From Bradyrhizobium sp. CCBAU 53340 (GTDB lineage Bacteria; Pseudomonadota; Alphaproteobacteria; Rhizobiales; Xanthobacteraceae), in assembly GCF_015291645.1 (NCBI RefSeq), contig NZ_CP030055.1, positions 2,046,001-2,110,000 on the forward strand: a stretch of DNA of 64,000 bases, written 5' to 3'. Of this stretch, positions 4,673 to 41,007 are shown piece by piece. The position numbers were made by a program, and so were the translations under genes. Position 1 is the first letter of the stretch. Each line of letters starts with the position of its first letter. The notes beneath the pieces are model-generated. The model had not been told where the DNA came from, did not search any database, and was given only the letters and a program-made list of their open reading frames with translations.

Positions 4673-4804
4673 TTATCGATTTTCTGTGGCCCCCATGATG
4701 GATTGGCGCGAGACCTCAAGTTTTTCAAGTGGTTAGGTGGCCGCGTGTGCGCGACGTGTGCACCGGGAGATCAACAAAGATCCTGTTACGGCCAGCGTGA
4801 GCAG
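4673..4804 (+). repeat. dusA-type attachment scar A (uninterrupted copy)
   Basis: Contains the 15-mer cccatgatggattgg at 4692-4706, found again in the same orientation at 29684 and 40993. In frame it encodes YRFSVAPMMDW, matching the conserved N-terminus of tRNA-dihydrouridine synthase A (APMMDWTDRH), a known integration target of islands. The frame then stops after RETSSFSSG, so no dusA follows. Bases 4707-4804 align without gaps over at least 64 bases to the sequence resuming at 31612 after the group II intron, which makes this the empty-site counterpart of scar B. Confidence 0.7.
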
Positions 4805-4843
4805 ACATTTGAAATGGAAGAGAAGTCGCCGTGTGGCTTGCAG

Positions 4844-6856
4844 CTAGCTAGTGGCCTGCGGTTCCGACGCGCGCAGCGTGGGATAGCGTGCCGCCAATTC
4901 CGCGAAGAGCTCCTGCACTAGCCCCGCGTCGTCTTCGTGCCGATCGGCCTTGAGCCGGGCGTCGAGGGCATCGAACAGCTGATGCTTGACGAAGAACCGC
5001 CACGCCACCGGCAAGCGCGCCAGGATGGCGGTGAGCTCGCGATAGCGGGCCTCGGTCCAGCGGCTCTCGAAGGTGGAACGATAGGAGCCGAAGTCAAACA
5101 CGTCGCTCCGTTCCGGCCGCGCCTTCCGCATCTCGTCGCGCAGCCTGCGCGTGCCGTCCTCGTCAATGCGGTTGCGGTCGATGACGACGCCATACTGCGC
5201 CCGCGCGGCCTCGAGCGAGACATAGCCGGAGAGAACGTCGATCAAGACCCGGCGCGGCTCACGCAACAGAGGATCGCCGAATCCGCCGGCGCCGGCGCCG
5301 ACGAGACGAATCCGGTCGCCGGGCTTGCAGGGCACCACGTCGGTGTTGCCGAGCGCCTCGGTGACTGGTCCGTCGGGATTTCTGGTGAAGATTGCGTTGG
5401 CGCCGGCGCCGCCGCCGAGGACGCCCCACGAGGCGAAATAGGTGCGATCGCGATTGCGCGCGGTGACAGTGGTGCCCGGCGTGAACACCTCGAACTCCAT
5501 GGTGAGGCCGAGCCCGCCGCGATAGGTTCCGGCACCGCCAGAGTCGGGTGCGAGGCAATAGCGCCGCATGCGGATCGGCACCTCCAGTTCGTTGATCTCG
5601 ACCGGCGTGTTGCGCAGGAAGGCGTTGTTGGCGCCCGAGCCGTCGCTGCCGTCGCCGGTAGCCATTCCGCCCGCGCCGCCGCCGACCGGTCCGAGCGAGG
5701 CCATGACGCCGCGTCCGGCCTGATCCATCGTCTTGACCGTGACGATCGCCATGCCGCCGGCGGAGCAGGCCGGCATGCGCTCGGGAATCGCGCGGGAGAA
5801 TACGCCGAAGGTCAGCATGTGCGTGATCTTGCAAGTCAGGCTGCGCATGCCGACCGCCGCCGGTGCCGTCGCATTCATGACGGTGCCTTCCGGGAGGACG
5901 CAGCGAACCACACGATCGAGCCCGGAATTGAGCAGGATGTCGCTGTTCAGCGTGTAGAGCACGTAGTGGAATCCGACCAGCGCCAGCGCATGGCGCGGCA
6001 TGCCGCCGGTCGGCATGTTCAGCGAGGAGGCGAGCTGAGGGTCGCTGCCGGTATAGTCCATGACCGCGCGGCCGTTGTCGATCGTCAGCGTCAGCGCGAG
6101 CCGCATCGGCTTGCCGTTCTCACTGTCCTCGTCGGCATATTCCGCGAAGAAATATTCTCCGTCCGGAATTGTCTTCAGGACGGCTTCAGCCTGTTTCTCG
6201 GCGTAGTCCATCACCTGGTACATGCCGGCTTTGAAATCGTCGATGCCGAAGCGCTCGATGATCTCGAGCACGCGCTTCTCGCCGTTCACCAGCATGGCGA
6301 TCTGCGCCTGCAGATCGCCGCGATTTTGCGACGGCGCGCGCACGTTCAGGGTCATGATGTCGAGCAGGCCTTCGTCGAGCTCGCCCTGGTCGACGATCTT
6401 GCAGGGCGGAAAGCGGATGCCTTCCTGCTCGATCTCGGTCAGCCTGCGCGAGAGCGACGCCGGGACCGCGCCGCCCATGTCGGTGTTGTGGATGTGGCCG
6501 CCGACATAGCAGACGATCTCGCCGCGGTAGAACACCGGCTTCCACATCAGGATATCGGGCGTATGCGTCGCCACGCTGCCGCTATAGGCATCGTTGGTCA
6601 TGCAGATGTCGCCAGGGTGATACTCCCTGATCAATCCCAGCACTGGCCCGTAGTCGAGGCCGATATACCAGGTCGCTCCCAGCGTCTTCGGGGAGGCGAA
6701 GGCGAGCCCTTCCGGCGTGATCAGGGCGCAGGAGAAATCCTCGGTCTCCTTCACAAAGGTCGAATGCGCCGTGCGGATCAGCGTGTAGGCCATGCTTTCC
6801 GCAGCAGCCACGCAGTAATTGGCGAAGATCTGAAGAGCGGAACCACTGAGTGCCAT
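4844..6856 (-). CDS. hyuB: Hydantoinase B / oxoprolinase family, beta subunit
   Basis: 670 residues, the usual size for the HyuB or N-methylhydantoinase B family. Family blocks are visible: FVKETEDFSCALITPEG, GDICMTNDAYSGSVATHTPD, YVGGHIHNTDMGG, and the C-terminal LVGAGAGGFGDPLLREP. With HyuA it would form an ATP-dependent cyclic-amide hydrolase acting on hydantoins, 5-oxoproline or similar lactams in the cytoplasm. The start codon lies 12 bases past the hyuA stop and is preceded by AAAGGA. It is the last gene of a four-gene operon with transporter and FAD oxidase. The exact substrate cannot be read from sequence. Confidence 0.93.
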   Translation of the reverse strand: MALSGSALQIFANYCVAAAESMAYTLIRTAHSTFVKETEDFSCALITPEGLAFASPKTLGATWYIGLDYGPVLGLIREYHPGDICMTNDAYSGSVATHTPDILMWKPVFYRGEIVCYVGGHIHNTDMGGAVPASLSRRLTEIEQEGIRFPPCKIVDQGELDEGLLDIMTLNVRAPSQNRGDLQAQIAMLVNGEKRVLEIIERFGIDDFKAGMYQVMDYAEKQAEAVLKTIPDGEYFFAEYADEDSENGKPMRLALTLTIDNGRAVMDYTGSDPQLASSLNMPTGGMPRHALALVGFHYVLYTLNSDILLNSGLDRVVRCVLPEGTVMNATAPAAVGMRSLTCKITHMLTFGVFSRAIPERMPACSAGGMAIVTVKTMDQAGRGVMASLGPVGGGAGGMATGDGSDGSGANNAFLRNTPVEINELEVPIRMRRYCLAPDSGGAGTYRGGLGLTMEFEVFTPGTTVTARNRDRTYFASWGVLGGGAGANAIFTRNPDGPVTEALGNTDVVPCKPGDRIRLVGAGAGGFGDPLLREPRRVLIDVLSGYVSLEAARAQYGVVIDRNRIDEDGTRRLRDEMRKARPERSDVFDFGSYRSTFESRWTEARYRELTAILARLPVAWRFFVKHQLFDALDARLKADRHEDDAGLVQELFAELAARYPTLRASEPQATS

Positions 6857-6868
6857 AATCCGAATCCT

Positions 6869-8920
6869 TTAGATCGCCGCGGCAAGATTGATGATGTGAA
6901 GATTGCCCCAGCGGTCGACGTTCACCTCGAAGTCGGGGAGCACGCAGGTGGTGGTGTCGTCCTGTGCGATGATCGCAGGGCCGACGATGTGGTCGCCGGC
7001 GCGCAATGCTTCGCGCCGATAGAGCGGCATCTGCCGCATCGCGCCGTCCATCCAGCACGGCACGATGGCGGCGGGCTTCGCGGGCGCGGTCGCATCCGGG
7101 ACCGGCGTCAGCACCGGGCGCGGCGTGCGGACCTTGGCCACGACGCGCAGCGCCACCACCTGGATCACGGCCTTCTCGTCGCGATAGCGGTAAAGGCGCT
7201 CATGGGCCTGATGGAAGGCTTCGCGCAGCGCGGCGAGGTTCTTCGTGCGCATGGCCTCGGCGTCGAACGCGGTCTCGATCTCGAAGGACTGGCCTTGGTA
7301 GCGCATCTCGGCGGTGTAGGTCAGTTCGGGCCGCGCGCTGGCGCCGACCTCGGCGCGGACCCAGCCGAGTGCTTCCTGCTCCAGCGCCTGCCGAGCGCGC
7401 TCGAGCGCATCCCATTCCTCGTCACCGAGCGCACACCAGGCAACCGCGACGAAATCGTTGCGCGTGTCGGCGATCAGGCCGCCAAGGGCGCTGAGCACGC
7501 CGGGCGTCAGGGGCACGGTAATCCGCTCCATGTTGAGGGCGCGCGCCAGATGGCAGGCGAGCATCGGACCTGCGCCGCCGAAGGCCATCAGCGCGAATTC
7601 CCGGGGATCGATCCCGAACCGCGAGATCAGCCGGCTGACGCCCGAATACATCCCGGACATCGAGACATTGATGATCGCTTCGGCAACCGCTTCGATGGAC
7701 TCGCCGAGTCGTGCGGCGAGGGGCGCAATCGCCTCGCGCGCGGCTGCAACATCGAGCCGGACCGAATCATAGCCGAGCGCCGTCTGGCCGAGCACGCCGA
7801 TCGCGGCGAAGGCATCGGTGATGGTGGGCTCGCGGCCGCCGCGCCCGTAGCAGACCGGACCCGGCGTCGAGCCTGCGCTCTCCGGTCCGACCTTGAGCAC
7901 GCCGAACGGATCCACGCGCGCGATCGAGCCCCCACCGTCACCGATCGAGGTGACGGAGACCGAGGGAATGTGGATCTGATGGTCGCCGATATATTCGCCG
8001 GTGGCATATTGCGGCTCGCCGCCGACAATCAGTGCGACGTCGGCGGTCGTGCCGCCGATGTCGAGGCTCATGACGTTCTTCAGCTCGCAGAGCTGTGCGA
8101 CCCACGCGGCGCCGATCACGCCGGAGGCCGTGCCTGATAGTACGATCTGGACGCAATCGGTCTTGCCGCGCTCGGCGCTCATCACGCCGCCGTTCGATTT
8201 GGTGACCTTGAGATCGGCGGTGACGCCGGAGCTGCGCAATGCCGCCTGCAGCGAGGTCAAATAGTTCGAGACCACCGGCTGCACATAGCCGCCGATCACG
8301 GCCGTGTTGGTGCGTTCGTATTCGCGGATGATCGGCCACACCTCGCTGGCGCAGGAGACGAACAGTTCCGGCGCCGTCTCGGCGATGATCGCCCGGACCT
8401 GCCGCTCGTGCTCTGGATTGCGGTAGGCATGGAGCAGCGAGATCACGACGCCCTCGCAGCCGGTGCGCTTCAGCCCGGCCACGGCTTCGCGCACGCTCGC
8501 GGCGTCGACCGGTTCGAGCTCTTTGCCCTCGGCGTCCAGCCGTCCGTCGATGCCGAAGGTGCGATAGCGCGGCACCAGCGGCTCCGGCCGCGCCGACATC
8601 AGATGATACATGTCGGGAGTCTTCAGACGCGCCAGCACCAGGACGTCCTCGAAATAGCGGTTGGTGATCAAACCGAGGCGAATGCCCTTGCGCTGCACCA
8701 CCGCGTTGACGCCGACCGTGGTGCCGTGGGTGAAGTGCACAACCTCGGCCGGGTCGATCCCGTAGCGCTCGCCGAGCATGCGCATGCCGTCGGCGACCTC
8801 GCGGCCCGGCGCGTCCGGGCGCGAGAACACCTTGAGGCTGCGCACGGTGCCGTCGCTTTCGTCGAGGACCGCGAAGTCGGTGAAGGATCCGCCGATATCG
8901 ACGCCGATTCTCAAACCCAT
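6869..8920 (-). CDS. hyuA: Hydantoinase A / oxoprolinase family, ATP-binding subunit
   Basis: 683 residues from the ATG at 8920, chosen because GGAGAG precedes it and the product opens with GLRIGVDIGGSFTDF, the phosphate-binding loop of the family. Further marks are THGTTVGVNAV, a second ATPase-fold loop LDIGGTTADVALIVGG, and AFGGAGPMLACHLARAL. It is the ATP-using partner of the adjacent HyuB. The upstream neighbours are an FAD-dependent amine oxidase and an MHS-type transporter, suggesting uptake and breakdown of a cyclic or N-substituted nitrogen compound. N-methylhydantoin, 5-oxoproline or acetophenone-carboxylase-like roles all remain possible. Confidence 0.93.
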   Translation of the reverse strand: MGLRIGVDIGGSFTDFAVLDESDGTVRSLKVFSRPDAPGREVADGMRMLGERYGIDPAEVVHFTHGTTVGVNAVVQRKGIRLGLITNRYFEDVLVLARLKTPDMYHLMSARPEPLVPRYRTFGIDGRLDAEGKELEPVDAASVREAVAGLKRTGCEGVVISLLHAYRNPEHERQVRAIIAETAPELFVSCASEVWPIIREYERTNTAVIGGYVQPVVSNYLTSLQAALRSSGVTADLKVTKSNGGVMSAERGKTDCVQIVLSGTASGVIGAAWVAQLCELKNVMSLDIGGTTADVALIVGGEPQYATGEYIGDHQIHIPSVSVTSIGDGGGSIARVDPFGVLKVGPESAGSTPGPVCYGRGGREPTITDAFAAIGVLGQTALGYDSVRLDVAAAREAIAPLAARLGESIEAVAEAIINVSMSGMYSGVSRLISRFGIDPREFALMAFGGAGPMLACHLARALNMERITVPLTPGVLSALGGLIADTRNDFVAVAWCALGDEEWDALERARQALEQEALGWVRAEVGASARPELTYTAEMRYQGQSFEIETAFDAEAMRTKNLAALREAFHQAHERLYRYRDEKAVIQVVALRVVAKVRTPRPVLTPVPDATAPAKPAAIVPCWMDGAMRQMPLYRREALRAGDHIVGPAIIAQDDTTTCVLPDFEVNVDRWGNLHIINLAAAI

Positions 8921-8975
8921 AGTGCAGGTCTCTCCGTTAGAGTGTTGTCGAACCATGTCCGCGGGCGGGCGGGGC

Positions 8976-10295
8976 TTAGCGGCGCTTTTCCATGTGGTCG
9001 CGCAGCTGGAAATAACTGCCGAGGATCGGCATGAACCATGTCTGGCCGTGATAGAGCGGATGGGACGGCAGCGGCGTGCCGAAGGCGTCGGATGCAAGAT
9101 CGTGCTCGCCCAGCAGGTGACGTCCCAGCCGATGGCCGAGCCAGGTCATCGTCGTGACGCCGCTGCCGTTGCAGCCGGCCGCGTAGTAGCAGCCTTGCGG
9201 ATCGCGCCCGAGATGCGGCAGGGCATCCAGCGTCACGGCCACCTTGCCGCCCCAGCTATGGCTGACCTTGACGTCGCGCAGTTGCGGAAAGCGCTCCGTC
9301 ATCTGTGCGAACAGGATCTTCGCGCTGGCTTTGCGGTCGAGCGGATAGAAACGCGCGCGACCGCCGAACAGAAAGCGTTGTCCGTCGGGGGAGTAACGGT
9401 AGTAGGCTGTCACCCGGTTGGCCTCGGCGACGCCGCGATCCCCGGAGATGAGCGTGCCGCGCAGCTCCGCAGGCACGACGTCGGTCGCGATCTGATGCGA
9501 GGTGACCGGGACCAGGCGTCGCTTGAGCCAGGGCGTCGCCGCGCCGGTGTAGCCGTTGGTTGCGATCACCACGCGCCTCGCGGAAATCTCGCCTTGGCCG
9601 GTCGTGATCCGGTAGCCGGCACCCGTGCGCGCGATCGACGAGACCGGCGCATGGCAGACGAGTTTTGCGCCGGCGGCAAGCGCGGCCGCCAGCAGCCCGC
9701 CGAAGAATTTCGCCGGATGCAGATGTCCCGCGCCGTTGATCAGCGCGCCGCCGACATAGACCTCGCTCGCCAGCTCCCGGCGCAGCGCATCGCGGTCCAG
9801 CATGCGCACGTCGCTGTCGGTATGCGCGTTGAGCCTCGCAATCCGTCCTTCCCAGCTGCGAACCTGCGCCGCGGTCCAGGCCGCGGCGATGCGGCCGTTG
9901 CGGCGATAGTCGCAATCTATGCCGTGGCGCGTGATCAACGTCTCGAGGAAGCGGTAGCCGGCCGCCGCCTCGCGCAGCCTGTCCTCGATCGCCGTGTTGC
10001 CGGCCGCCGCGCTGACGCGCTTGGACATGCTCTTGCCGACATTGACGCCGCCTGTGACCTGGCCGCCGCTGAGCGTGCTGGCGCCGATGCCGGGAAGCTC
10101 GGCTTCCAGCACCACGACCTTGGTGCCGTGCGCGGCGAGTTCGAGCGCGCAGGATAGGCCGGCATAGCCGGCGCCGATGATCGCGACATCGGTCTCGCGG
10201 GGCAGGCTGCCGGCGCCGGAATCGTTCGGACGCCAGCCGTCCCACCAATAGGGGGTCTCGGAGAAATCCGGTGCGAAGATGGAGGACTTGCTCAT
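8976..10295 (-). CDS. FAD-dependent amine/amino acid oxidoreductase (PuuB/DadA-like)
   Basis: 439 residues with an N-terminal Rossmann loop TDVAIIGAGYAGLSCALEL (about residues 36-54). The DAO-family C-terminus follows (YYAAGCNGSGVTTMTWLG, the second FAD-contacting segment). The opening PYWWDGWRP is typical of gamma-glutamylputrescine-oxidase-like members. It should oxidise a secondary or primary amine to an imine or aldehyde with H2O2 or electron release. It starts three bases after the MFS gene stop and sits 55 bases before hyuA, so it belongs to the same operon. It is one of three DadA-like oxidases here. Confidence 0.88.
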   Translation of the reverse strand: MSKSSIFAPDFSETPYWWDGWRPNDSGAGSLPRETDVAIIGAGYAGLSCALELAAHGTKVVVLEAELPGIGASTLSGGQVTGGVNVGKSMSKRVSAAAGNTAIEDRLREAAAGYRFLETLITRHGIDCDYRRNGRIAAAWTAAQVRSWEGRIARLNAHTDSDVRMLDRDALRRELASEVYVGGALINGAGHLHPAKFFGGLLAAALAAGAKLVCHAPVSSIARTGAGYRITTGQGEISARRVVIATNGYTGAATPWLKRRLVPVTSHQIATDVVPAELRGTLISGDRGVAEANRVTAYYRYSPDGQRFLFGGRARFYPLDRKASAKILFAQMTERFPQLRDVKVSHSWGGKVAVTLDALPHLGRDPQGCYYAAGCNGSGVTTMTWLGHRLGRHLLGEHDLASDAFGTPLPSHPLYHGQTWFMPILGSYFQLRDHMEKRR

Positions 10296-10298
10296 CGC

Positions 10299-11645
10299 TT
10301 ACACCACCGGATCGGCAACGGCAGTTGCCGGGACGACGTAAGGCGCGGAGCGACGCTGATCGTAATAGAGGAATACGCTGACGAAGGAGAGGGTCGCGAT
10401 GACCGCAACGTAGCAGGGGACCGCGTAGGGCGTGCCGGTCCGTTCGATCAAGAATGCCGCAACCAGCGGCGCGGTCCCGCCGAACAGGGCGGTGCCGGTA
10501 TTGTAGGCGATGCCGCTCGCCGTCACGCGCATCTCGCGCGGGAACATGTCGACGAGTCCGATCGTCATGCCGCTGGTGATCAGTGGATAGACCAGCACCG
10601 GAATGACCGCGGCGGCGATCGCGCTCGCTGGCGTCGCAAAACTTGCGACATAGAAGGAGAGGAACATCGCGGGGATCACGAGGATGCAGCCGGCGAGCAG
10701 GGTCGGCCGCCGCCCCACGGTGTCGTTGACCCAGCCGTAGGTGACGGTGGTCGCCATCAGCACCATCTGGGCGATGAAGATCGCCAGCGATGCCTGCGTC
10801 TCGCCGATCTTCACGAAATTGGTGAGATAGGTCGCCAGGAAGCCGAGCACAAGATAGTTCGACAGCGTGTGGCTCATCAGGATGCTGATGAAGAACAGCA
10901 TCCGGCGCCACTGGCTGCGGAACACGGCCGAGAGCGGCGGTGCTTCCGTCCGCAGGCGGCGGCGCTCTTCCTCGATGGCGAGAAACTCAGGCGATTCATC
11001 GATCTGGGTACGGATCCAAAGACCGAGAAGCCCGAGTGGCACACCAAGCCCAAACATCAGCCGCCAGCCCCAGCTTGCCATGCTCTCCGCGCCGATGATG
11101 GCCGAGACCAGTGTGAAGATGCCGACCGCGATCGCCGTGCCGGCATAGGCGGCGACCGGTGAGAAGGAGGCCCTGAGCGCGCGGTGCTTGCTGTCTCCCT
11201 GCTCGACGATATAGGCGGTCGCAGCGGTGTACTCGCCGCCAGCGAAGAAGCCCTGTGCCAGACGACAGAACACCAGAGAGGCCGTCGCGAAGCTGCCGGC
11301 GATGGCGTAGCTCGGCAGGAATGCCGTGATCGCAGTGACCACGCACATGCCGCTCACCGAGACGAAGAGCGCCGAGCGTCGCCCCAGGCGATCACCAACG
11401 CGTCCCATGACGATGCCGCCGAGCGGTCGGATCAGGAAGCTCGACGCATAGATCATCATCGTCTGCAGCAGCGCCACGGTCGGATTGCCGGGCGGGAAGA
11501 ACGTCGTCGAGATGATCTTCGCAAGCAGGCCGAAGATCGCGAAATCCAGGAAGTCGATGAGATTGCCGGCCACGGCGCCGGAGATCGCCTTCAGTTGGAG
11601 GCGGCGGGTCATTGGGCCGGGGGGAGTCGCTCCATCTCGGGTCAA
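10299..11645 (-). CDS. MFS transporter, metabolite:H+ symporter (MHS) type
   Basis: 448 residues, about 12 membrane helices. The MFS loop-2/3 motif is present as GRVGDRLGRRSALF, and GGEYTAATAYIVEQG is characteristic of the MHS group (ShiA/ProP/KgtP relatives), which import organic acids or osmolytes with protons. The start is read as TTG at 11645 because GGAGAA sits six bases upstream; the first ATG, at 11612, has no good ribosome site. It is the first gene of the operon ending in hyuB, and divergent from an IclR regulator across a palindromic operator. It probably imports the substrate of the operon. Confidence 0.88.
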   Translation of the reverse strand: MTRDGATPPGPMTRRLQLKAISGAVAGNLIDFLDFAIFGLLAKIISTTFFPPGNPTVALLQTMMIYASSFLIRPLGGIVMGRVGDRLGRRSALFVSVSGMCVVTAITAFLPSYAIAGSFATASLVFCRLAQGFFAGGEYTAATAYIVEQGDSKHRALRASFSPVAAYAGTAIAVGIFTLVSAIIGAESMASWGWRLMFGLGVPLGLLGLWIRTQIDESPEFLAIEEERRRLRTEAPPLSAVFRSQWRRMLFFISILMSHTLSNYLVLGFLATYLTNFVKIGETQASLAIFIAQMVLMATTVTYGWVNDTVGRRPTLLAGCILVIPAMFLSFYVASFATPASAIAAAVIPVLVYPLITSGMTIGLVDMFPREMRVTASGIAYNTGTALFGGTAPLVAAFLIERTGTPYAVPCYVAVIATLSFVSVFLYYDQRRSAPYVVPATAVADPVV

Positions 11646-11744
11646 GCCAAGTTCTCCTGTTGTTGGACCATCCGCTCGCGCGGACCGTCGGGAATGAGCG
11701 CCGCATGTTTCTGTTGCCCCGGCCAGGCAACTGTGCCACTATAC

Positions 11745-11757
11745 GGAACGTCGTTCC
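11745..11757. promoter_or_regulatory. Palindromic IclR-type operator candidate
   Basis: Perfect inverted repeat GGAACG-T-CGTTCC in the divergent gap between the MFS operon (start 11645) and the IclR gene (start 11883). Size and GGAA..TTCC arms fit IclR-family operators. It probably controls the hyu operon, and perhaps the regulator itself. Confidence 0.55.
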
Positions 11758-11882
11758 ATTTTTAAGTTAGCAAGGAAGCGGGTGGATGGCAAGCGCTGTC
11801 GGGAAAAGCCGGCCTTGTGCTATGGGCGGCGCTCGTGCCCTCTGCCAAGGGACGCTGCTGCGCGGGAATCGCGGTCGGGGTG

Positions 11883-12617
11883 ATGAAGAGTCTGCTGAAG
11901 AGCCTGGAAGTTCTGGAAGCCGTCGCGGAGATGCAGCCGGTCGGCGTGAGCGAGCTTGCGCGCCGGCTCGATCTGCCCAAATCCACCACGCAACGGATTC
12001 TGCAGACATTCGCGACGACCGGCTGGCTGCGTCCGGTCGGCGGCGAGGCCACGCGCTGGCAGATCGGTCATCGCGTGCTGCATCTCCAGGTGCCGGAGCT
12101 GCAAGCCGGCCAGCTCTACGTCGCGGCGCGCAAGCCGATGCAGGAGCTGCGCGATCAGGTGAACGAGACCGTACACCTGTCGATTCTGGACGGGCTCGAC
12201 GCCATGCTCCTGATCGATCGCGTGGACTGTACGCAGAATGTCAGGACCTTCAGTCCGATCGGCGATCGATCGCCGATTCACGCCACGGCTATCGGCACGG
12301 CAGTGATGGCGCACCTCGCGCCCGACCAGATCGATGCCGTCATCAATCGCGGCCTGACGCGCTATACCGAGAGCACCATCACGGACCCGCAGGAGTTGCG
12401 CGCGGAGCTCGCTCGTGTGCGCGAGCGCGGCTATTCGCTGAACCTTTGCTGCTACCGTCCGGCCGTCTGCGCCATTGGCGCCGCCATTCTCGATCCCCAG
12501 GGCCGGCCCGTCGGCGGCCTCTGCATCTCGATGCCTGCTTCCCGTTACGTCGAACGCAACGAGAAGATCTGGGGCGGCATGGTCAATGCGACCGCGCGCA
12601 AGATCAGCGTCGGCTAA
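11883..12617 (+). CDS. IclR family transcriptional regulator
   Basis: 244 residues from the ATG at 11883; a frame extension upstream exists but carries no ribosome site and the family fold begins at once here (KSLLKSLEVLEAVAEM). The winged helix is VSELARRLDLPKSTTQRILQ. The C-terminal effector domain includes HATAIGTAVMAHL and the end GGLCISMPASRY. It is divergent from the MFS/oxidase/hyuA/hyuB operon and is its likely local regulator, sensing a small organic ligand. A GC hairpin separates it from the convergent next gene. Confidence 0.9.
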   Translation: MKSLLKSLEVLEAVAEMQPVGVSELARRLDLPKSTTQRILQTFATTGWLRPVGGEATRWQIGHRVLHLQVPELQAGQLYVAARKPMQELRDQVNETVHLSILDGLDAMLLIDRVDCTQNVRTFSPIGDRSPIHATAIGTAVMAHLAPDQIDAVINRGLTRYTESTITDPQELRAELARVRERGYSLNLCCYRPAVCAIGAAILDPQGRPVGGLCISMPASRYVERNEKIWGGMVNATARKISVG

Positions 12618-12632
12618 GAGCGCGGTCAGCCT

Positions 12633-12649
12633 CGTGGCAATGCGCCACG
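12633..12649. terminator. Small hairpin between convergent genes
   Basis: CGTGGC-aatgc-GCCACG lies in the 44-base gap between the convergent IclR and FAD oxidase genes. There is no T-run, so its role as a terminator is only plausible. Confidence 0.3.
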
Positions 12650-12661
12650 CAGTCCAGCTTG

Positions 12662-14185: not shown

Positions 14186-14222
14186 TTGTGCCTTCTGGCG
14201 CCTGCTCGATGGAGAGTCTCCC

Positions 14223-31611: not shown

Positions 31612-31710
31612 AGAGTGCAAGTTTTTCAATCGGTTAGAGGGCCGCGTGTGCATGACGTGTGCACCGGAAGATCAAGAACAGTCTATCGTCGGCAAGCGTG
31701 GGCGGTTGCT
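31612..31710 (+). repeat. dusA-type attachment scar B, right half (3' exon)
   Basis: Resumes as agagtgcaagtttttcaa and matches scar A from 4711 onward without gaps; about 54 of the first 64 bases agree, and the similarity fades after about 31710. An open frame reads CKFFNRLEGRVCMTCAPEDQ here and LKFFKWLGGRVCATCAPGDQ in scar A. The remaining bases to 31966 show no gene. Confidence 0.65.
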
Positions 31711-31966
31711 CTTTGGAGATGCGGGCGTTTGATTAGAGCAGGGCGCTTGCGCGAGTCTAAGACTAATGATGTTCGTCACCAACGAGATCTCTGTTCGGCT
31801 TAGCCCGATGTCGCGGCTATTTGCGGTGAAGGCAAAGAATGGCGGTCGGGGTTTCGAGTCGCTCCCCCGCTACCAGCCGTGGTCCTCAGAACGCTACGCC
31901 AAAGCGACACCTGACTAGCTCCGTCTCCGCATCGCCCTTGCGAGACAGCATCGCTGCGCCTGCCGC

Positions 31967-33796: not shown

Positions 33797-33845
33797 ACTG
33801 GCCTCCTGTTTGCGGGTTGGGCATCGGCGATGCGCTGCTCCGCGG

Positions 33846-35390
33846 TCACGGAGCGTCCTCCATCCATGTTCGGCCGTCGCGTTCGATCAGTGCGACGGCG
33901 GCGGAGGGGCCCCAGCTGCCGGCAACGTAGGGACGCGGGATTTCATTCAGCTGGCTCCACGCCTGACGGATCGGATCGATCCAGCGCCATGCGGCTTCCA
34001 CTTCGTCCCGACGCATGAATAAGGTCGCATCTCCGCGGACCACGTCCATCAACAGCCGCTCGTAAGCGTCAGGCACGGAGACGTCGAATGCTTCGGCGAA
34101 GCTCATGTCGAGAGGGATATATTGCAACCGCATGCCGCCCGGTCCGGGCTCCTTGATCATCAGCCAGAGCTTGATTCCCTCGTCGGGCTGCAAACGGATC
34201 ACCAGCCGCGTCTGCAAAGCCTTTCCCGAATTCGAATTGAAGATCGAGTGCGGCACTTTCCTGAAAGTCACGACGATCTCGGAGCTGCGCTGTTGCAGTC
34301 GCTTTCCGGTGCGCAGATAGAAGGGAACGCCGGTCCAGCGCCAATTCGCAACGGCCGCCTTGAGTGCGACGAAAGTCTCGGTCGCGCTTTGGCGATCATC
34401 GATCTCTTCCGCGTAACCGGGGACGGCGATGCCGTTGCATGCGCCTGGGCGGTATTGGCCCGGCACGGTCAGCGATGCCGCGTTCGCCTCGTCGATCCGC
34501 TCAAGCGATTTCAGGATCTTGAGCTTCTCATCACGTACGGCGTCGGCTTCGAGCGAATGTGGCGGCTCCATCGCCACCAGGCAGAGTAGCTGCAGAAGGT
34601 GGTTTTGAACCATGTCGCGTAGCGCGCCGGATTTGTCGTAGTAGGGGCCGCGTTCCTCCACGCCGATGGACTCCGCGACCGTGATCTGCACATGGTCAAT
34701 GTGGGCGGCATTCCAAAGAGGTTCGAACAGCGCGTTGGCAAAGCGCAGCGCCATCAGGTTCTGCACGGTCTCCTTGCCGAGATAGTGATCGATCCGGTAG
34801 ACGCGCTCCTCCGGGAAAATCATCCCGATGGCTTGGTTGAGCCGGATTGCGGATTCGAGATCCTTGCCGATCGGCTTCTCGATGACGATGCGGGAATCGC
34901 CTTCTGAAAGACCGTACTGACCCAGTCTTTCGCAGATCGGTCCGAACAGATGCGGCGCCGTCGCCAGATAGTGGACCTGGATGCGATCGGCATAGGCTAA
35001 TAGCGCGCCGGCGAGTTCGGTCCAGCCATTCTCACCTTCCGCATCGGCAGCCAAATAGGAGATTCGGGCAAGGAAGCGATCGAGTTCGGGTCCCGTCGTC
35101 TCTGATGCCGGCACATGTTTGACGATCGCCTCGCGCACCATCGCGAGGAAGTCATCTTGCGACATTGCACCGCGCGCGACGCCGAGAATGGTTGCTTCAT
35201 CCGGCAACTGGCCCGCAAAATCGCGGCGAAACAGCGCCGGCAACAGCTTGCGGCGAGCAAGATCACCTGTCACCCCGAAAACGGTCAGGACGAAGGGTGC
35301 CACCGGGATGACGCGGCTTGTCATGCCCGCCGCCTTTTCAATTCGAGCCCCTTTGATGTGCCCCGTTGTGTCCGTCACTCTGTCAAGCAT
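33846..35390 (-). CDS. zwf: Glucose-6-phosphate 1-dehydrogenase
   Basis: 514 residues from the ATG at 35390, which overlaps the kinase stop by eight bases (ATGCTTGA); a longer upstream reading is only antisense-like sequence within the kinase gene. The cofactor loop is [17 protein letters not shown]. The active-site motif [19 protein letters not shown] is complete. It oxidises glucose 6-phosphate to 6-phosphogluconolactone, the first step before Edd. The start is translationally coupled to the sugar kinase. An alternative ATG 22 codons later is also possible. Confidence 0.95.
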
Positions 35391-36339
35391 GGCATGGCTC
35401 CGTACTCGCATCGATGTCGGCGGCGGTCGGCAGGTCGGCTCCATCGCGGGACACCGTGATGGCAGCGGCAGCCGTCGCGTAAGCGAGCAACTCGCGGATT
35501 GCAGGCAGGTCGAGCGCCGCGATGGCGTCAGGACGGAGCCGGCCGGTTTTCGCAAGCTGCGCAAGCAGCGCGGCGTGAAACGTGTCGCCGGCGCCTACGG
35601 TGTCGCGCACGATCGCGGAACGACCGGGCACCGAAACGCTGCCAGCGGTCGAAAAGGCGGTTGCTCCCTTTGCTCCCTCGGTCACGACGACCAGGTGCGC
35701 GCCGCACGCGAGCCAGTAGGCGGCCGCATCGGCAATTGAGGCGCGACCACCCCAGGCAATGCGGACATCCTCGTCGCTCGCTTTGATTATCGTGGCGGTC
35801 CGATAGAAGCGTTCCGCGGCGACGGCCCAGCTTTTCATGTCGCCGATGACGGTCGGCCGCACGTTCGGATCGACGCTGATGACGCGGCGGCCCTGCTCGC
35901 GCTCGGCGAGCGCGGCGAATGTGGTGCCGACCGGCTCGACAGCCATGGAATAGGAGCCAAAGCTCAGAGCCTGAATATCGTCCGGCAGCTCGCGGGGCAG
36001 GTGGACAAGCTGAAGCGAGCGATCTGCTGCGCCTTCGCCGTGGAAAGTGTAGTTCGGCTGGCCGTCATCGGTCATCGCCACGATCGAAATCGGGGACGGC
36101 CGATCGGCGCGCATAACAAAACGACCATCGACGCCCTCGCGAGCGAGCCTGTCTGCGAGGAACGTGCCGAAGTGATCGCGCGAGATCCCACTCAGGAAGG
36201 CCGTTCGAACCCCAAGCCGAGCGAGGCCAACAGCAACATTGAAGGGAGAGCCGCCGGCAACGGCATGGGTCGACATGTCGGACCCGCCGTGTGCCCTCAC
36301 AAATAGGTCGATCAACGCTTCGCCGCAGACAAGAATCAT
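35383..36339 (-). CDS. PfkB family carbohydrate kinase (fructokinase-like)
   Basis: 318 residues from the ATG at 36339 (GAGGG upstream). PfkB signatures: MILVCGEALIDLF at the N-terminus, VAGGSPFNVAVGLARLG, and the C-terminal GAGDTFHAALLAQL with the catalytic aspartate. Fructokinases share this arrangement. The linked frc-type importer makes fructose the likely substrate, giving fructose 6-phosphate that can enter the Zwf/Edd route after isomerisation. It is preceded by the ROK gene with a 34-base gap. Confidence 0.9.
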   Translation of the reverse strand: MILVCGEALIDLFVRAHGGSDMSTHAVAGGSPFNVAVGLARLGVRTAFLSGISRDHFGTFLADRLAREGVDGRFVMRADRPSPISIVAMTDDGQPNYTFHGEGAADRSLQLVHLPRELPDDIQALSFGSYSMAVEPVGTTFAALAEREQGRRVISVDPNVRPTVIGDMKSWAVAAERFYRTATIIKASDEDVRIAWGGRASIADAAAYWLACGAHLVVVTEGAKGATAFSTAGSVSVPGRSAIVRDTVGAGDTFHAALLAQLAKTGRLRPDAIAALDLPAIRELLAYATAAAAITVSRDGADLPTAADIDASTEPCHA

Positions 36340-36373
36340 GATGCGCAACCCTCGTTCATCAGGACGACCATGC

Positions 36374-37609
36374 TCAATCCTTGAAGAGCACGTCGTGGTC
36401 GCGAGCGAACGCCGCGAGCAACGGCAGCGCCGCGCCGCCGATCGCGCGCGCATCGCGCCCGATCGAGCCTTCGACCACCACAGCGTCGGTGAGGCCCTGC
36501 CGGTCCATACGGGCCCATTCGTCGTTCGTTCGCTCGACGAGGCGACGGCGCACATCGACCGGAAAGGCCCCGTCAATGATGACGGCTTCAAAGTCGATCA
36601 CTGCGAGTAGGGCGGTGATCGCCTGCGCCAACGCCGCGGCCGCCTCGGAAAGCCACGCTTCCAGTGGTTCCTCGAAGCTCGACCAGTCGTTGGGCGAGAG
36701 CCAGATATCGGTGCCTGGCCGGCCCGCGGCGATCAGTCGGCGCTCGAGCTGATAGATGGAAGCGGTGCGGATCAACTGCTCAAGGCTTGCCTCACCGTTT
36801 TCCTCCCGTCGCATGATCGGCATGGAGCCGAGCGCGCCGGCATTGCTGCTGCGGCCCGGGAAGAGGCTGCCGTTCAGAACGATGCCGCCGCCGATGAAGG
36901 TGCCAATGTACAAATAGGCGAAATCCCGATACGCCGCGCCGGCACCGAAGGTGAGTTCGGCTGCACATGCCGAAGTCGCGTCGTTGCAGACGCGCACCGG
37001 CCAAGGAGCGAAACGGCGCGACAGTTCTGCGGCGACGTTGAAGTCACGCCATTTGCCGAGCGCGCCGGGTGGTGTCTGCAGATCAGCTTCCCAGTTCCAC
37101 AACTCGAATGGCATTGCGACGCCGATGCCGCTGATCCTGCCACGCTGGGCGTCGGGCAATTCGGCGAGAAGGCCCGGCATCTCGCGTTCGGCAAAGGCCA
37201 TGATCTCGTCGGGCGCGGGGAAGGAATAGATCATGCGTCGCCTGGCACGGATGCCGGCCGCGAAGTCCATCAACACCAGATCCGAACTGCGCCGGCCGAT
37301 CATGAGCCCCAATCCAAATGCGCCGTCCGGATTGAGCGAATAGGGGACCGAAGGCTGGCCGATGCGGCCTCGCTGTGGTTCGCCCGGTAGGAGCAGTCCA
37401 TCGGCTTCCAGCCGATTGATGATTACGGTCGTGGTTTGAGTTGAAAGGCCAGTGAGGCGCGCAATCTCGACCTTGGCGAGACTGCGATGGCGCCGAATGA
37501 GGGAGAGGATCAGGCGTTCGTTGTACAGTCTCACGCCGGTTTGGGTGGTGCCGCGGCTGTCGCCGGGGAAGGCCACCGTAGCGCCAGCAACCGGTGCTAT
37601 TTCTTCCAT
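36374..37609 (-). CDS. ROK family transcriptional regulator of the fructose cluster
   Basis: 411 residues from the ATG at 37609, preceded by GAGGAG. The N-terminal winged helix reads SLAKVEIARLTGLSTQTTTV, followed by a ROK sugar-binding fold (GIGVAMPFELWNWEADLQTP, YLYIGTFIGGGIVLNG). The zinc motif usual in ROK repressors (CxCGxxGCxE) is missing; in its place is PIMRREENGEASLEQLI. It is divergent from the sugar importer across a 33-base palindrome, so it is probably the repressor of both arms, released by fructose or a phosphorylated sugar. Confidence 0.9.
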   Translation of the reverse strand: MEEIAPVAGATVAFPGDSRGTTQTGVRLYNERLILSLIRRHRSLAKVEIARLTGLSTQTTTVIINRLEADGLLLPGEPQRGRIGQPSVPYSLNPDGAFGLGLMIGRRSSDLVLMDFAAGIRARRRMIYSFPAPDEIMAFAEREMPGLLAELPDAQRGRISGIGVAMPFELWNWEADLQTPPGALGKWRDFNVAAELSRRFAPWPVRVCNDATSACAAELTFGAGAAYRDFAYLYIGTFIGGGIVLNGSLFPGRSSNAGALGSMPIMRREENGEASLEQLIRTASIYQLERRLIAAGRPGTDIWLSPNDWSSFEEPLEAWLSEAAAALAQAITALLAVIDFEAVIIDGAFPVDVRRRLVERTNDEWARMDRQGLTDAVVVEGSIGRDARAIGGAALPLLAAFARDHDVLFKD

Positions 37610-37707
37610 CCTCGGCTCCTCACAATCGGGAATCTGTCCTCGCGACAGGTCGATTGGTCCCATTTTCGGCAGTCGGCCGCCACAATGGACGCAGATGGCC
37701 ACGCGTG

Positions 37708-37740
37708 TCAATTAATAAATCGGGATGATTTATTTATTGA
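37708..37740. promoter_or_regulatory. ROK operator: long AT-rich palindrome
   Basis: Two 14-base arms (37708-37721 and 37727-37740) around the spacer gggat, complementary except for one pair; the core is AATAAATC-gggat-GATTTATT. It lies in the divergent gap between the ROK gene and the sugar importer and stands out as AT-rich in GC-rich DNA. NagC/Mlc-type operators have this character. Confidence 0.75.
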
Positions 37741-37766
37741 CAAGGTCGTTTGGCGCTCTCTAGGAT
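37737..37766 (+). promoter_or_regulatory. Sigma-70-type promoter of the fructose importer
   Basis: TTGACA at 37737-37742, an 18-base spacer, and TAGGAT at 37761-37766. The -35 box overlaps the right arm of the palindrome, so repressor binding would block RNA polymerase. The downstream start codon is at 37825. Confidence 0.6.
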
Positions 37767-37824
37767 GCCCCAACACGCGGTCGAAACCGTGCAGGCAACA
37801 AGACGTCCAACGAGGAGGGAATAA

Positions 37825-38844
37825 ATGCGTCAATCACTCGGACTAATCGCAGCGTTCGCGCTGGCTCTGGGCAGCACCAGCAGTTTCGCGGCCGACAAGT
37901 CGATCGTGGGCCTCATCACCAAGACCAACACCAATCCGTTCTTCGTGAAGATGAAGGCCGGCGCCGACGAGGCTGCGAAGGCGAACGATGTCGAGCTGCG
38001 CTCGTTTGCCGGAAAGGTCGACGGCGACAACGAGAGCCAGGTTGCGGCCATCGAGGACCTCATCGCCGCCGGTGCCAAGGGCATCCTGATCACACCAAAC
38101 GACTCCCGCGCGATCGTCCCGGCTGTCGAGAAGGCGCGGGCGGCGGGCATTCTGGTCATCGCCCTCGACACCCCGCTCGATCCGCCGAACGCGGCGGATG
38201 CAACGTTTGCCACCGATAATTTTCTGGCAGGTGAAATGATCGGCCAATGGGCCGCCAAGACGCTGGGTGCGAAGGCGGCATCGGCGAAGATCGCGCTGCT
38301 CGACCTCAACGTGAACCAGATCTCGGTTGATGTCGCCCGCGATCAGGGCTTTCTGAAAGGTTTTGGCATCGATCTCGGCAACCCCGCCAAGATCGGTGAC
38401 GAGAAGGATGCGCGTATCGTCGGTCACGATGTGACGCTCGGCAGCGAGGAGGGCGGCCGCAAGGCGATGGAGAACCTGCTCCAGAAGAATCCCGACATCT
38501 CGCTCGTCTATACCATCAACGAGCCGGCGGCGGCGGGAGCCTACGAGGCCTTGCGCTCCGTCGGCCGCGACAAGGATGTGCTGATCGTTTCCGTCGATGG
38601 CGGTTGCCCCGGCGTGCGCAACGTGAAGGACAGCGTCATCGGCGCCACCTCCATGCAGTTCCCGCTGCTGATGGCGGCGAAGGGCGTCGAGGCGGTGAAG
38701 ACTTTTGCCTCCGGCGGCGGCAAGCCGAAGTCCTCGCCCGGTCTCGACTTCGTCAATACCGGCGTCGAACTCGTCACTGACAAGCCTGTTGGCGAAATGC
38801 CGTCGATCGACAGCGCTGCCGCCTTGAAGAAGTGCTGGGGCTGA
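37825..38844 (+). CDS. frcB: Sugar ABC transporter substrate-binding protein (FrcB-like)
   Basis: 339 residues with a signal peptide ([19 protein letters not shown]). It is a Peripla_BP_4 ribose/fructose-type binding protein: [66 protein letters not shown]. It resembles the fructose-binding FrcB of rhizobia. The ribosome site GAGGAGGG precedes the ATG. It is the first gene of a three-gene import operon divergent from the ROK, kinase, zwf, edd genes. Fructose specificity is inferred from similarity and context. Confidence 0.88.
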
Positions 38845-38961
38845 TCGCAGCTCCGACTTGTACCCAACGGCAAGAACTGGCGCCCGCGAGCCGGGCGCCA
38901 AGAGCCGGAAACCCTTCCGCGATTGGACGGGCAGATCTCCGCATCAACGAGGAAAATGGCC

Positions 38962-40044
38962 ATGACCGATATCGGCAGTAGCCGCCCGGCCGCCCAGGCC
39001 TTCGAGCTCGTGCTCGACAAGGGCGAGAGTCGCGTCGCCGAATTCGAGGTTCGCGCGAGATCGCCGCTGCAGAAGCTTCAGCACTTTCTGCACGCCAATC
39101 CGACGGCGGTGCCGGCAATCGTGCTCCTGCTCAGCGTTGCGGCGTTCGGCTTCACCGTCGGCCCGCGTTTTCTGTCGATGTTCAACCTGTCGCTGATCAT
39201 CCAGCAGGTCACGATCATCGGCGTGATCGGAGCGGCACAGACGTTGATCGTGATCACCGCCGGCATCGATCTGTCGGTCGGAGCCATCATGGTGCTGTGC
39301 TCCGTCATCATGGGCAAGCTCGCGGTCACCATAGGACTGCCAGCTCCAATCGCGCTCGTTGTCGGCGTTGCCGCGGGTGCCGGCTGCGGCGTGCTCAACG
39401 GTACGCTGGTGACCCGGCTCAAGCTGCCGCCGTTCATCGTCACGCTCGGGACGTGGTCGATCTTTTTTGCTCTCAACCTTTGGTATTCGGCGTCCGAGAC
39501 CATCCGCTCGCAGGAGGTCGCGAAAATCGCCCCGTTGCTGCAGGCATTGGGAACGCCGGTGAACGTCCTTGGCGCGCGTTTCACCTACGGCTCGTTCTTC
39601 ATGCTCGGCCTCGTGGCGTCGATCTGGTTCGCGCTGAATCGCACGGCCTTCGGGCGCCATCTCTATGCGGTGGGCGACGATCCCGACGCGGCGCGGCTTT
39701 CCGGCATCCGAACGGACCGCATTCTCTTTAGTGTCTATGTGATCGCCGGCGTGATTTGCGCGCTTGGTGCGTGGACCCTGATCGGGCGCATTGGTTCGAT
39801 CAGCCCGCAGGCCGGCCAGACGGCTAATCTGGATAGCATCACCGCGGTGGTCGTCGGCGGCGCCAGCCTATTCGGCGGGCGTGGTTCGATTATCGGTACG
39901 CTGATCGGCGCTCTTATTGTCGGCGTCTTTCGCAACGGCCTCGCGTTGTCCGATGTCGATGTGCTCTGGCAGGAGTTCGCCGTCGGCTGGCTGATCATCA
40001 TCGCTGTGGCGCTCGATCAATGGATTCGCAAGGTGTCGGCATGA
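38962..40044 (+). CDS. frcC: Sugar ABC transporter permease (FrcC-like)
   Basis: 360 residues from the ATG at 38962 (GAGGA nine bases upstream; an ATG two codons earlier is too close to it). It is a BPD_transp_2 permease with about nine or ten helices: LIVITAGIDLSVGAIMVLCS, PFIVTLGTWSIFFALNLW, HLYAVGDDPDAARLSGI and SITAVVVGGASLFGGRGSI. It forms the membrane channel of the fructose-type importer. Its stop overlaps the ATPase start (ATGA). Confidence 0.9.
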   Translation: MTDIGSSRPAAQAFELVLDKGESRVAEFEVRARSPLQKLQHFLHANPTAVPAIVLLLSVAAFGFTVGPRFLSMFNLSLIIQQVTIIGVIGAAQTLIVITAGIDLSVGAIMVLCSVIMGKLAVTIGLPAPIALVVGVAAGAGCGVLNGTLVTRLKLPPFIVTLGTWSIFFALNLWYSASETIRSQEVAKIAPLLQALGTPVNVLGARFTYGSFFMLGLVASIWFALNRTAFGRHLYAVGDDPDAARLSGIRTDRILFSVYVIAGVICALGAWTLIGRIGSISPQAGQTANLDSITAVVVGGASLFGGRGSIIGTLIGALIVGVFRNGLALSDVDVLWQEFAVGWLIIIAVALDQWIRKVSA

Positions 40045-40838
40045 GCACAGGACCGAATGTTCCCGGGGCAACACCGCTGCTTCAGGCACGCGGCCTCAAC
40101 AAGCGCTATGGCCGCGTGACGGCGCTCGATCACGCCGACTTCGATCTCTATCAGGGCGAGATCTTGGCCGTGATCGGAGACAATGGCGCCGGAAAATCGT
40201 CGCTGATCCGCGCGCTCTCGGGCGCGCTCGTTCCGGATGCCGGCGAGATCAGGCTCGACGGCCGGCCAGTCGCGTTCCGCTCGCCACTCGACGCTCAGGC
40301 GGCCGGCATCGAGACGGTCTATCAAACGCTGGCACTGTCTCCGAGCCTGTCGATCGCCGACAACATGTTTCTCGGCCGCGAATTGCGCCGTCCCGGTGCG
40401 CTCGGCACGTTCTGCCGCATGCTCGATCGCAAGGCCATGCAACGCATTGCCCGCGAAAAGCTTACCGAGCTTGGCCTCATGACCGTGCAGAGCATCAATC
40501 AGCGCGTCGAGACGTTATCGGGCGGTCAGCGCCAGGGTGTGGCGGTAGCAAGGGCCGCAGCCTTCGGCTCGCGCGTCGTCATCATGGACGAGCCGACTGC
40601 GGCGCTCGGTGTCAAGGAATCGCGTCGCGTGCTGGACTTGATCCTCGACGTGCGACGACGAGGCGTCTCAGTGGTCCTGATCAGCCACAACATGCCGCAC
40701 GTGTTCGAGATAGCCGATCGCATCCATATTCATCGGCTCGGTCGGCGGCTCACGGTGATCGATCCCAAGGCCTACACGATGTCGGATGCGGTTGCCTTCA
40801 TGACCGGGGCTCGGGCGCCGATTGAAGTCGCAGCGTGA
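40041..40838 (+). CDS. frcA: Sugar ABC transporter ATPase (FrcA-like, single domain)
   Basis: 265 residues with one nucleotide-binding domain, as in FrcA, unlike the double-domain RbsA type. Walker A is GDNGAGKSSL, signature LSGGQRQGVAVARA, and Walker B VVIMDEPTAALGV. The ATG at 40041 overlaps the permease stop by four bases. A small GAAAG/CTTTC hairpin follows the stop. 40839-41046 has no gene and carries scar C. Confidence 0.9.
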   Translation: MSTGPNVPGATPLLQARGLNKRYGRVTALDHADFDLYQGEILAVIGDNGAGKSSLIRALSGALVPDAGEIRLDGRPVAFRSPLDAQAAGIETVYQTLALSPSLSIADNMFLGRELRRPGALGTFCRMLDRKAMQRIAREKLTELGLMTVQSINQRVETLSGGQRQGVAVARAAAFGSRVVIMDEPTAALGVKESRRVLDLILDVRRRGVSVVLISHNMPHVFEIADRIHIHRLGRRLTVIDPKAYTMSDAVAFMTGARAPIEVAA

Positions 40839-40992
40839 CAGGACTCGAAAGCTTCGTCTTTCTTGGGGACGTAAGCGCGTCGATGCTCTCTCAGTTTTCG
40901 GAAACCCTCGCCGGCGTGGGGGCAGGGTCGTGGAGAGCCTTTCTCTGATTGGCTCCAATCGGACATCATTTGCTGGAGCTAGATCAAACTTA

Positions 40993-41007
40993 CCCATGAT
41001 GGATTGG
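40993..41007 (+). repeat. dusA-type attachment scar C
   Basis: Third exact copy of cccatgatggattgg, same orientation as scars A and B. In frame it reads LPMMDWTDSRASD, closer to native DusA (MMDWTDRH) than the other two. It lies 40 bases from the 3' end of the broken integrase gene. Sequence after the 15-mer does not match scars A and B. Confidence 0.65.

What the first reader, a model, noticed from the sequence alone, without database searches (positions are those of the whole stretch)
4673..41007. Three direct-orientation dusA attachment scars divide the region into modules
The 15-mer cccatgatggattgg occurs at 4692, 29684 and 40993, always on the plus strand and always in a frame giving PMMDW, the conserved DusA N-terminus (scar A even reads FSVAPMMDW). 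None is followed by dusA. The 5' end of dusA is an established target of a tyrosine-integrase family. Scars A and B bracket a 25-kb catabolic block; B and C bracket the fructose/Entner-Doudoroff block of 9.4 kb once the intron is subtracted. This fits tandem accretion of islands at one site. The alternative is that the spaces between scars are old chromosome.
Basis: partly seen in the sequence, partly recalled or inferred. Interest (0 to 1): 0.78.

Follow-up and report, generated by a model that had tools for sequence, protein, structure and literature searches.

The report
Islands stacked at dusA attachment sites
Three short repeats mark real recombination sites where two blocks of catabolic genes were stacked onto a soil bacterium's chromosome, and a self-copying intron that appears to seek out this kind of site has landed in the middle one.

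Summary
The 15-mer is where stated. Intact dusA lies 2.9 Mb away on the other strand. The sites are hybrid attachment sites: A = dusA 5' end|core|P'1; B = P|core|group II intron|P'1; C = P|core|P'2 beside a broken integrase gene. Modules A-B (25.0 kb) and B-C (9.4 kb without intron) show no integrase, so they look like cis-mobilizable islands accreted at a dus5'|core|P'2 junction, which G117 and G187 carry without them. In three complete relatives genes left of A lie upstream of dusA on its strand, so a rearrangement separated array and dusA.

Unforeseen: the intron's nearest relatives with a visible 5' end sit in such att sites (7 junctions in 6 of 265 genomes, left flanks unrelated), and its EBS1 pairs 6/6 with hybrid sites, 5/6 with native dusA. 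My ten paper searches listed no such case. Excision, homing and the cause of the rearrangement are inferred, not shown.

The parts
4521..4658 (+). Fragment like the C-terminal part of phage DNA primases, directly upstream of the dus5' piece; probably the end of an older element
   Evidence: phrog_1156 E 1.6e-6 on 4500-4706 translated
4659..4691 (+). dus5': dusA start (TTG) and DYRFSVA, left half of site A
   Evidence: 88% over 42 bp with host dusA, core included
4692..4706 (+). Core of site A
4707..4789 (+). P'1 arm of site A, left end of module A-B
   Evidence: model R1 91.8 bits; alignment of 29 sites
4707..29683 (.). Module A-B: catabolic island (hydantoinase/oxoprolinase, FAD oxidoreductases, dipeptide ABC transporter, aminotransferase, dehydrogenases); no integrase domain found
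   Evidence: Pfam; PF00589 in own genome
29640..29683 (+). P arm, right end of module A-B (approximate)
   Evidence: type counts
29684..29698 (+). Core of site B
29703..31611 (+). Group II intron inserted 4 bases after the core; begins GTGCG, ends GAC
   Evidence: RF02005 at 29734-29955 and RF00029 at 31537-31611; boundaries
30057..31538 (+). Intron-encoded reverse transcriptase/maturase, 493 aa, uninterrupted
   Evidence: TIGR04416 359 bits, cut-off 300; RVT_1; aligns over its length with relatives
31612..31696 (+). P'1 arm of site B, displaced by the intron; left end of module B-C
31612..40992 (.). Module B-C: dehydratase of the IlvD/EDD family, glucose-6-phosphate dehydrogenase, ROK regulator, sugar ABC transporter; no integrase domain found
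40943..40992 (+). P arm, right end of module B-C (approximate)
40993..41007 (+). Core of site C
41008..41046 (+). P'2 arm of site C (ACCGATTCACG..)
   Evidence: same arm beside homologous integrases in relatives
41047..42500 (-). Broken tyrosine integrase gene, called intK here; PF00589 remnant in 41047-41721, 54 bp missing near 42266 relative to relatives
42521..42565 (+). tRNA-Lys 3' fragment beside the start of intK: attachment site of a second system
   Evidence: intact tRNA-Lys in L044:2274-2349
52588..52634 (+). Second tRNA-Lys 3' fragment, about 10 kb further

Best explanation
A, B and C are attachment sites of the dusA-type recombination system, in the order dus5'|core|P'1 - cargo - P|core|[intron]|P'1 - cargo - P|core|P'2-intK. 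Seen in the sequence: the core equals the conserved 5' part of dusA, P and P'1 arms recur across the genus, and no integrase domain was found in the cargo. Inferred: two integrase-less islands (A-B, B-C) were integrated at a dus5'|core|P'2 junction by a dusA integrase acting in trans (candidate: relatives of int371 of G005). Having P ends, they cannot rebuild the start of dusA and are kept only behind another element. A group II intron whose EBS1 (CGTTCC) matches core + A(G/A)CG then entered site B; it puts 1.9 kb between core and arm and should lock the modules in place. A later chromosomal rearrangement separated the array from the dusA gene; its cause is open.
For: Hybrid flanks. P'1 arm conserved in 29 aligned sites; beyond about 250 bp no position is consistently shared between sites. 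86 distinct sites: 23 have dusA on the right, of which 20 dus5', 3 unclassified, 0 P on the left; 28 have P on the left, none beside dusA and none with int371 in the left flank held (two of the 28 had under 1.5 kb; Fisher 2e-5). No PF00589 hit between A and C, nor among the listed hits between sites of G188, G002 and G021 (list cut). G005 spacer between int371 and dusA carries the P'1 motif. A-B in G047 ends inside the core. G117 and G187 keep dus5'|core|P'2|intK. Left-flank genes are upstream of dusA on its strand in G002, G005, G021. Intron.
Against: No experiment; nothing shows that A-B or B-C ever excised. A-B in G047 lacks the P'1 arm and in G084 lies without att; B-C content in G264, G252 and G018 has no att borders, so the gene clusters also exist or move without these sites. 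In G145 A-B is circularly permuted but with no core at the junction. G000 has no int371 relative at E 1e-30, so no present-day enzyme for P'1 is identified in it. Blocks in G002 and G000 interleave rather than run collinear, so a single simple inversion is not shown. EBS2-IBS2 pairing of the intron is unclear.
Confidence: 0.72

Rival explanations
1. The DNA between the 15-mers is old chromosome and the repeats are chance or a conserved coding motif.
For: The flank left of A is shared by relatives. The A-B and B-C gene clusters occur in other genomes without att borders.
Against: About 0.016 exact copies expected in the genome; arms on both sides conserved in unrelated contexts; arms absent from intact dusA; G117 and G187 lack both modules at the same junction.
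Confidence: 0.04
2. The modules are real but were placed by another route: homologous recombination between core/arm repeats, or movement of the whole composite by the tRNA-Lys integrase (intK), not by a dusA integrase.
For: intK lies between core C and a tRNA-Lys fragment, and the fragment is found at 18 of 19 intK loci; no int371 relative in G000; gene clusters move without att in relatives.
Against: Borders at A, B and C follow the P/P' pattern expected of core-specific recombination, and in G047 the border falls inside the core.
Confidence: 0.14
3. The intron did not home to att sites; one ancestral insertion was spread by the islands themselves.
For: All junctions share position and orientation; most copies are partial; some 3' fragments (e.g. 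G114, 93% over 273 bp; G259, 98% over 115 bp) were not placed relative to att sites.
Against: The left flanks of the 7 junctions (1480 bp each) show no pairwise BLAST match, and EBS1 pairs with the att exon while other groups pair with their own targets.
Confidence: 0.15
4. Array and dusA were separated by a bipartite element using a tRNA-Lys and a dusA-type site, as bipartite symbiosis ICEs invert chromosomes, rather than by an ordinary repeat-mediated inversion.
For: Cassette core|P'2|intK|tRNA-Lys fragment in several genomes: core at 8 of 19 loci, tRNA-Lys fragment at 18 of 19. In G187 the sequence after the fragment resembles that after the intact tRNA-Lys of G000. Bipartite inversion is described for tRNA-Val/ybgC in PMC9174649 (passages).
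Against: No conjugation or second-site data here; the intact tRNA-Lys of G000 (C1:2008274-2008349) is followed by what looks like native sequence; breakpoints were not mapped; blocks interleave.
Confidence: 0.25

Closest known systems
dusA-specific genomic islands with DAI integrases (Farrugia et al. 2015, PMC4482086; passages read; also PMC8409611, passages)
   Same: Same target, the 5' end of dusA; the islands supply a new dusA 5' end; repeats at both ends; Bradyrhizobium sp. BTAi1 is named there; a tandem of two elements is reported at a Vibrio dusA
   Different: Modules A-B and B-C have no integrase and P ends that give no dusA start; they lie in an array away from dusA
CIME and tandem accretion (Streptococcus ICESt1 relatives; reviewed in PMC5704250, passages)
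   Same: Elements that keep att ends but have lost integration and transfer genes, stacked in tandem
   Different: Dozens of relatives with shared arms across one genus at dusA-type sites; a P-type end that never abuts the target gene in the 28 sites seen
Group II introns aimed at integron attC sites (IIC-attC; PMC7923331 and PMC4424553, passages)
   Same: A group II intron specialised on recombination sites of a cassette-like system
   Different: Here the sites are tyrosine-integrase att sites of large islands, and EBS1-IBS1 pairing is 6 bp, whereas 3-4 bp are given for IIC
Bipartite symbiosis ICEs of Bradyrhizobium (PMC9174649, passages; PMC9239051, passages)
   Same: Two attachment systems and large chromosomal inversions in the same genus
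   Different: Sites named there are tRNA-Val and ybgC (and other tRNAs); dusA is not mentioned in the passages or term counts seen; transfer genes were not looked for here

Membership tests
dusA-specific island (DAI family), for A-B and B-C | Direct repeats of the dusA 5' core at both ends | tested here: met
dusA-specific island (DAI family), for A-B and B-C | Carries a dusA-type tyrosine integrase | tested here: not met
   no PF00589 match between A and C; no int371 relative in the genome at 1e-30
dusA-specific island (DAI family), for A-B and B-C | Right end supplies a new dusA 5' end | tested here: not met
   right ends at B and C are P type
CIME (cis-mobilizable element) | att ends kept, integration gene absent | tested here: met
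CIME (cis-mobilizable element) | No conjugation genes | tested here: inconclusive
   none among the 27 reading frames searched with Pfam between A and C; not every frame was searched
CIME (cis-mobilizable element) | Mobilised by enzymes of another element | not testable with these tools
   needs an experiment
Group II intron | Catalytic RNA domains and GUGYG..AY ends | tested here: met
   RF02005 and RF00029 over gathering score; GTGCG..GAC
Group II intron | Reverse transcriptase/maturase | tested here: met
   TIGR04416 over cut-off
Group II intron | EBS1-IBS1 pairing | tested here: met
   6 of 6; fixed register 52 of 66 over 11 entries against 20-40 in other registers
Group II intron | EBS2-IBS2 pairing | tested here: inconclusive
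   looked at by eye in the alignment; no convincing 6-bp pairing in the expected register
Group IIC-attC intron | Insertion at an integron attC stem-loop with short EBS1 pairing | tested here: not met
   target is the dusA-type core, 6-bp EBS1 pairing
Bipartite ICE | Conjugation genes and two integrated parts at two chromosomal sites | not tested
   only att geometry beside intK was examined

The most novel reading that the evidence does not exclude
A group II intron lineage has specialised on the hybrid attachment sites of dusA islands. Its EBS1 reads core + A(G/A)CG, a sequence made when an island recombines (38 of 49 P'1 sites) and rare at native dusA (1 of 23). It thus spares the host gene, parasitises the island array, and by splitting core from arm freezes accreted modules in the chromosome. 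Underneath lies a genus-wide stock of integrase-less cargo islands that share only about 150 bp of arms and core, a large-scale counterpart of gene-cassette arrays.
Probability: 0.5. Interest if true: 0.78.

Novelty: new variant of a known kind. Interest (0 to 1): 0.64.

Why it matters
It shows how a soil bacterium may stack catabolic islands that carry no integration genes of their own, using only short shared arms, and gives a rule (P-type ends do not touch dusA) that predicts their order. The intron adds a layer: a retroelement aimed at island junctions could turn mobile DNA into fixed chromosome, which bears on why so many genomic islands are immobile. Both ideas can be tested with short constructs in laboratory strains.

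Tried and rejected
Truncated dusA copies: tblastn of host DusA against the window gives only 16 residues at A and 10 at C. intK as the dusA integrase: not preferred, because its start adjoins a tRNA-Lys 3' fragment at 18 of 19 loci. A gene shared beside P'1 sites: no position beyond the first 250 bp is consistently shared. One clean empty site for the whole region: not found; G117 and G187 show only the junction, and their further flanks differ from G000. RNA families: only the two intron parts in the window. Cause of the G145 permutation: no core at its junction, left open.

Limits and results against: searches scored only 2 candidates per genome, so absences there are not counted; searches drew samples or cut lists, and row lists were cut by the tool. 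In one search the dusA sites with int371 (11 of 20, plus 1 of 3 unclassified) are inflated, because L255-L284 came from the int371 search; sites with too little flank were dropped, and my type rules leave 11 of 86 left halves unclassified. Some of the 90 genomes with an int371 hit match at only 31-39% identity. One of the 7 intron junctions (G104) continues for only 61 bp, both in G192 stop at contig ends, and the 3' side was seen only in G000 and G028. Intron fragments without a 5' end (G114, G259, G246) were not placed. In the EBS1 test eight representatives were used, best of three registers, a one-base boundary shift in one group; L289 and L292 were left out; the att loop also pairs 6 of 6 with one other group's exon (f6). 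The tree left out L285, L286, L287, L288, L290 (second loci of kept copies) and L320, and is midpoint-rooted.

Literature: ten searches, open-licence PMC only; listings were seen for all, passages for PMC4482086, PMC8409611, PMC8627217, PMC9174649, PMC9239051, PMC5704250, PMC7923331, PMC4424553; no paper was read whole. That a P-type end beside dusA would cost it its start is my inference.
Full report
OBSERVATION. The 15-mer is at the three stated places on the plus strand and is not expected by chance. In the whole genome (8,716,512 bp, two contigs) it occurs six times exactly and once with its first base changed. The copy at C1:4987111, minus strand, is the start of an open dusA reading frame. 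The window is C1:2046001-2110000, so this array is 2.9 Mb from dusA. The genus is Bradyrhizobium by inference: 26 of 27 stretches with the arm pattern in named genomes bear that name, the other being an alphaproteobacterial MAG, and G058:C5 and NZ_VLLA01000005.1 have the same length, 392,767 bp.

ANATOMY. Flanks fall into types. Left halves are a dusA 5' end (dus5') or an element arm P ending like GCTCAAACTT. Right halves are dusA body, P'1, P'2 or rarer arms. A = dus5'|P'1. B = P|P'1 with a group II intron four bases after the core. C = P|P'2. P'1 is conserved for roughly 75 bp after the core in 29 aligned sites and holds CGTGTGCAC-like repeats. In 9-kb right flanks only the first 250 bp is consistently shared between P'1 sites; later stretches are shared with up to 9 others at no fixed place, apart from one that is a neighbouring site's arm. 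DusA protein matches the window only by 16 residues at A and 10 at C.

CARGO. A-B holds hydantoinase/oxoprolinase, FAD oxidoreductases, a dipeptide-type ABC transporter, an aminotransferase and dehydrogenases; B-C a dehydratase of the IlvD/EDD family, glucose-6-phosphate dehydrogenase, a ROK regulator and a sugar ABC transporter (27 reading frames). No PF00589 match lies between A and C.

RELATIVES. Of 195 genus genomes, 124 have the exact 15-mer, many several times on one strand; the reversed-pattern control is 0 in the rows shown. A core+P'1 pattern with up to 2 mismatches is in 57 of 107 genomes of the genus and 2 of 284 of other genera of the family, control 0. Among 86 distinct sites, 23 have dusA on the right (20 dus5', 3 unclassified, 0 P on the left); of 28 P-type sites none abuts dusA and none has int371 in the left flank held, two of them with short flank (Fisher 2e-5; sites are not fully independent). 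int371, about 140 bp upstream of dusA and divergent from it in G005, has a hit at 1e-30 in 90 of 265 genomes, some distant, and none in G000. Its spacer to dusA carries the P'1 motif, so it is my candidate enzyme (inference). No listed PF00589 hit lies between the exact sites of G188, G002 or G021 (list cut at its weak end).

MODULARITY. A-B is collinear in G047 over 25.7 kb; its right border falls inside the core, its left lacks the P'1 arm. G084 has the cluster without att. In G145 it is circularly permuted through a 1.2-kb spacer without a core: compatible with a circular intermediate, not proof. B-C content is in G264, G252 and G018 without att borders. G117 and G187 carry dus5'|core|P'2|intK|tRNA-Lys fragment, the G000 order with A-B and B-C left out. 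In G117 a segment that G000 has at C1:2021878-2025182 ends 205 bp before the core; in G000 a different neighbouring segment ends near A.

WHY dusA IS ELSEWHERE. Markers left of A lie upstream of dusA on its strand in three complete genomes: 385-399 kb away in G002, 331-343 kb in G005, 68-81 kb in G021. G002's zone before dusA matches parts of both C1:2.01-2.12 Mb (plus) and C1:4.98-5.15 Mb (mostly minus) of G000, in interleaved order. Two decayed P'1 arms (60.7 and 27.8 bits) lie 83 and 174 kb upstream of the G000 dusA. So the zone was split; one simple inversion is not shown. intK lies between core C and a tRNA-Lys fragment; the fragment is at 18 of 19 intK loci examined, the core at 8 of 19. 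A two-site element is a possible cause.

THE INTRON. 29703-31611, with Rfam matches to both catalytic parts and a 493-aa reverse transcriptase/maturase over the NCBIfam cut-off, full length against relatives. Copies at 89% or more with a visible 5' end (G028, G218, G177, G192) sit at the same place of dusA-type sites; 67-79% relatives sit in several other targets. A junction pattern finds 7 places in 6 of 265 genomes, reversed control 0. The left flanks of the seven show no pairwise match. The att-site copies (6 rows) are split from 23 others with 100/100 support. In a fixed register 11 intron/exon entries pair at 52 of 66 positions against 20-40 in other registers. With eight target groups and the best of three registers, own pairs are 48 of 48, shuffle mean 29.8, 1 of 20,000 reaching 48; the att loop pairs 6/6 with GGAGCG and GGAACG and 5/6 with dusA's GGACCG, but also 6/6 with one unrelated group's exon. 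A(G/A)CG follows the core at 38 of 49 P'1 sites and 1 of 23 dusA sites. EBS2 is unclear. I infer homing to hybrid att sites and inactivation of site B.

KNOWN WORK (passages only). dusA islands and integrases: PMC4482086, PMC8409611; dusA ICEs in Mesorhizobium: PMC8627217. CIME accretion: PMC5704250. Group II intron targets listed as homing sites, terminators and attC: PMC4424553; integron introns: PMC7923331. Bipartite ICE inversions: PMC9174649. Searches combining group II intron with dusA, attB, attachment site, attC or Bradyrhizobium listed nothing on this case.

VERDICT. The array reading is right in kind: a known mechanism in a genus-wide form with a distinct integrase-less end type. The intron is the more surprising part and rests on seven junctions, pairing statistics and unrelated left flanks.

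Noticed in passing
window 42521-42565 and 52588-52634; L044:2274-2349: Two tRNA-Lys 3' fragments mark a second, tRNA-Lys-based attachment system beside the dusA-type one; an intact tRNA-Lys lies about 80 kb to the left of the first.
   Followed up: partly
G000:C1:2969972, 3018466, 3163692: Three more dusA-type sites on the plus strand, all P-type on the left, form another displaced set.
   Followed up: partly
G000:C1:5070051-5070112 and 5161257-5161322: Decayed P'1 arms on the minus strand upstream of the true dusA, so that locus has its own old array.
   Followed up: partly
L070, L073; L050:18466-18480: Further right-arm types after the same core (ACCGGGACATC.., ACGGACTCTCC.., GCTTGCTGATCC..), the last also at a near-core in G002 at 4215918, suggest several integrase specificities on one core.
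   Followed up: no
G145:C1:1776282-1801230: The A-B gene cluster is circularly permuted relative to the window, joined through a 1.2-kb spacer.
   Followed up: partly
L289-L314: Other clades of the same intron family use their own repeated target groups, e.g. TAGCATTACAGTTG and TAGCACTACTTTGG, whose nature was not examined.
   Followed up: no
window 61355-63211: Two neighbouring AraC-type regulator-sized frames are tandem copies, 74% identical over 863 bp; only the first was searched with Pfam.
   Followed up: no
window 4521-4658: A primase-like fragment directly abuts the dusA start at site A, a likely relic of an older phage or satellite.
   Followed up: partly
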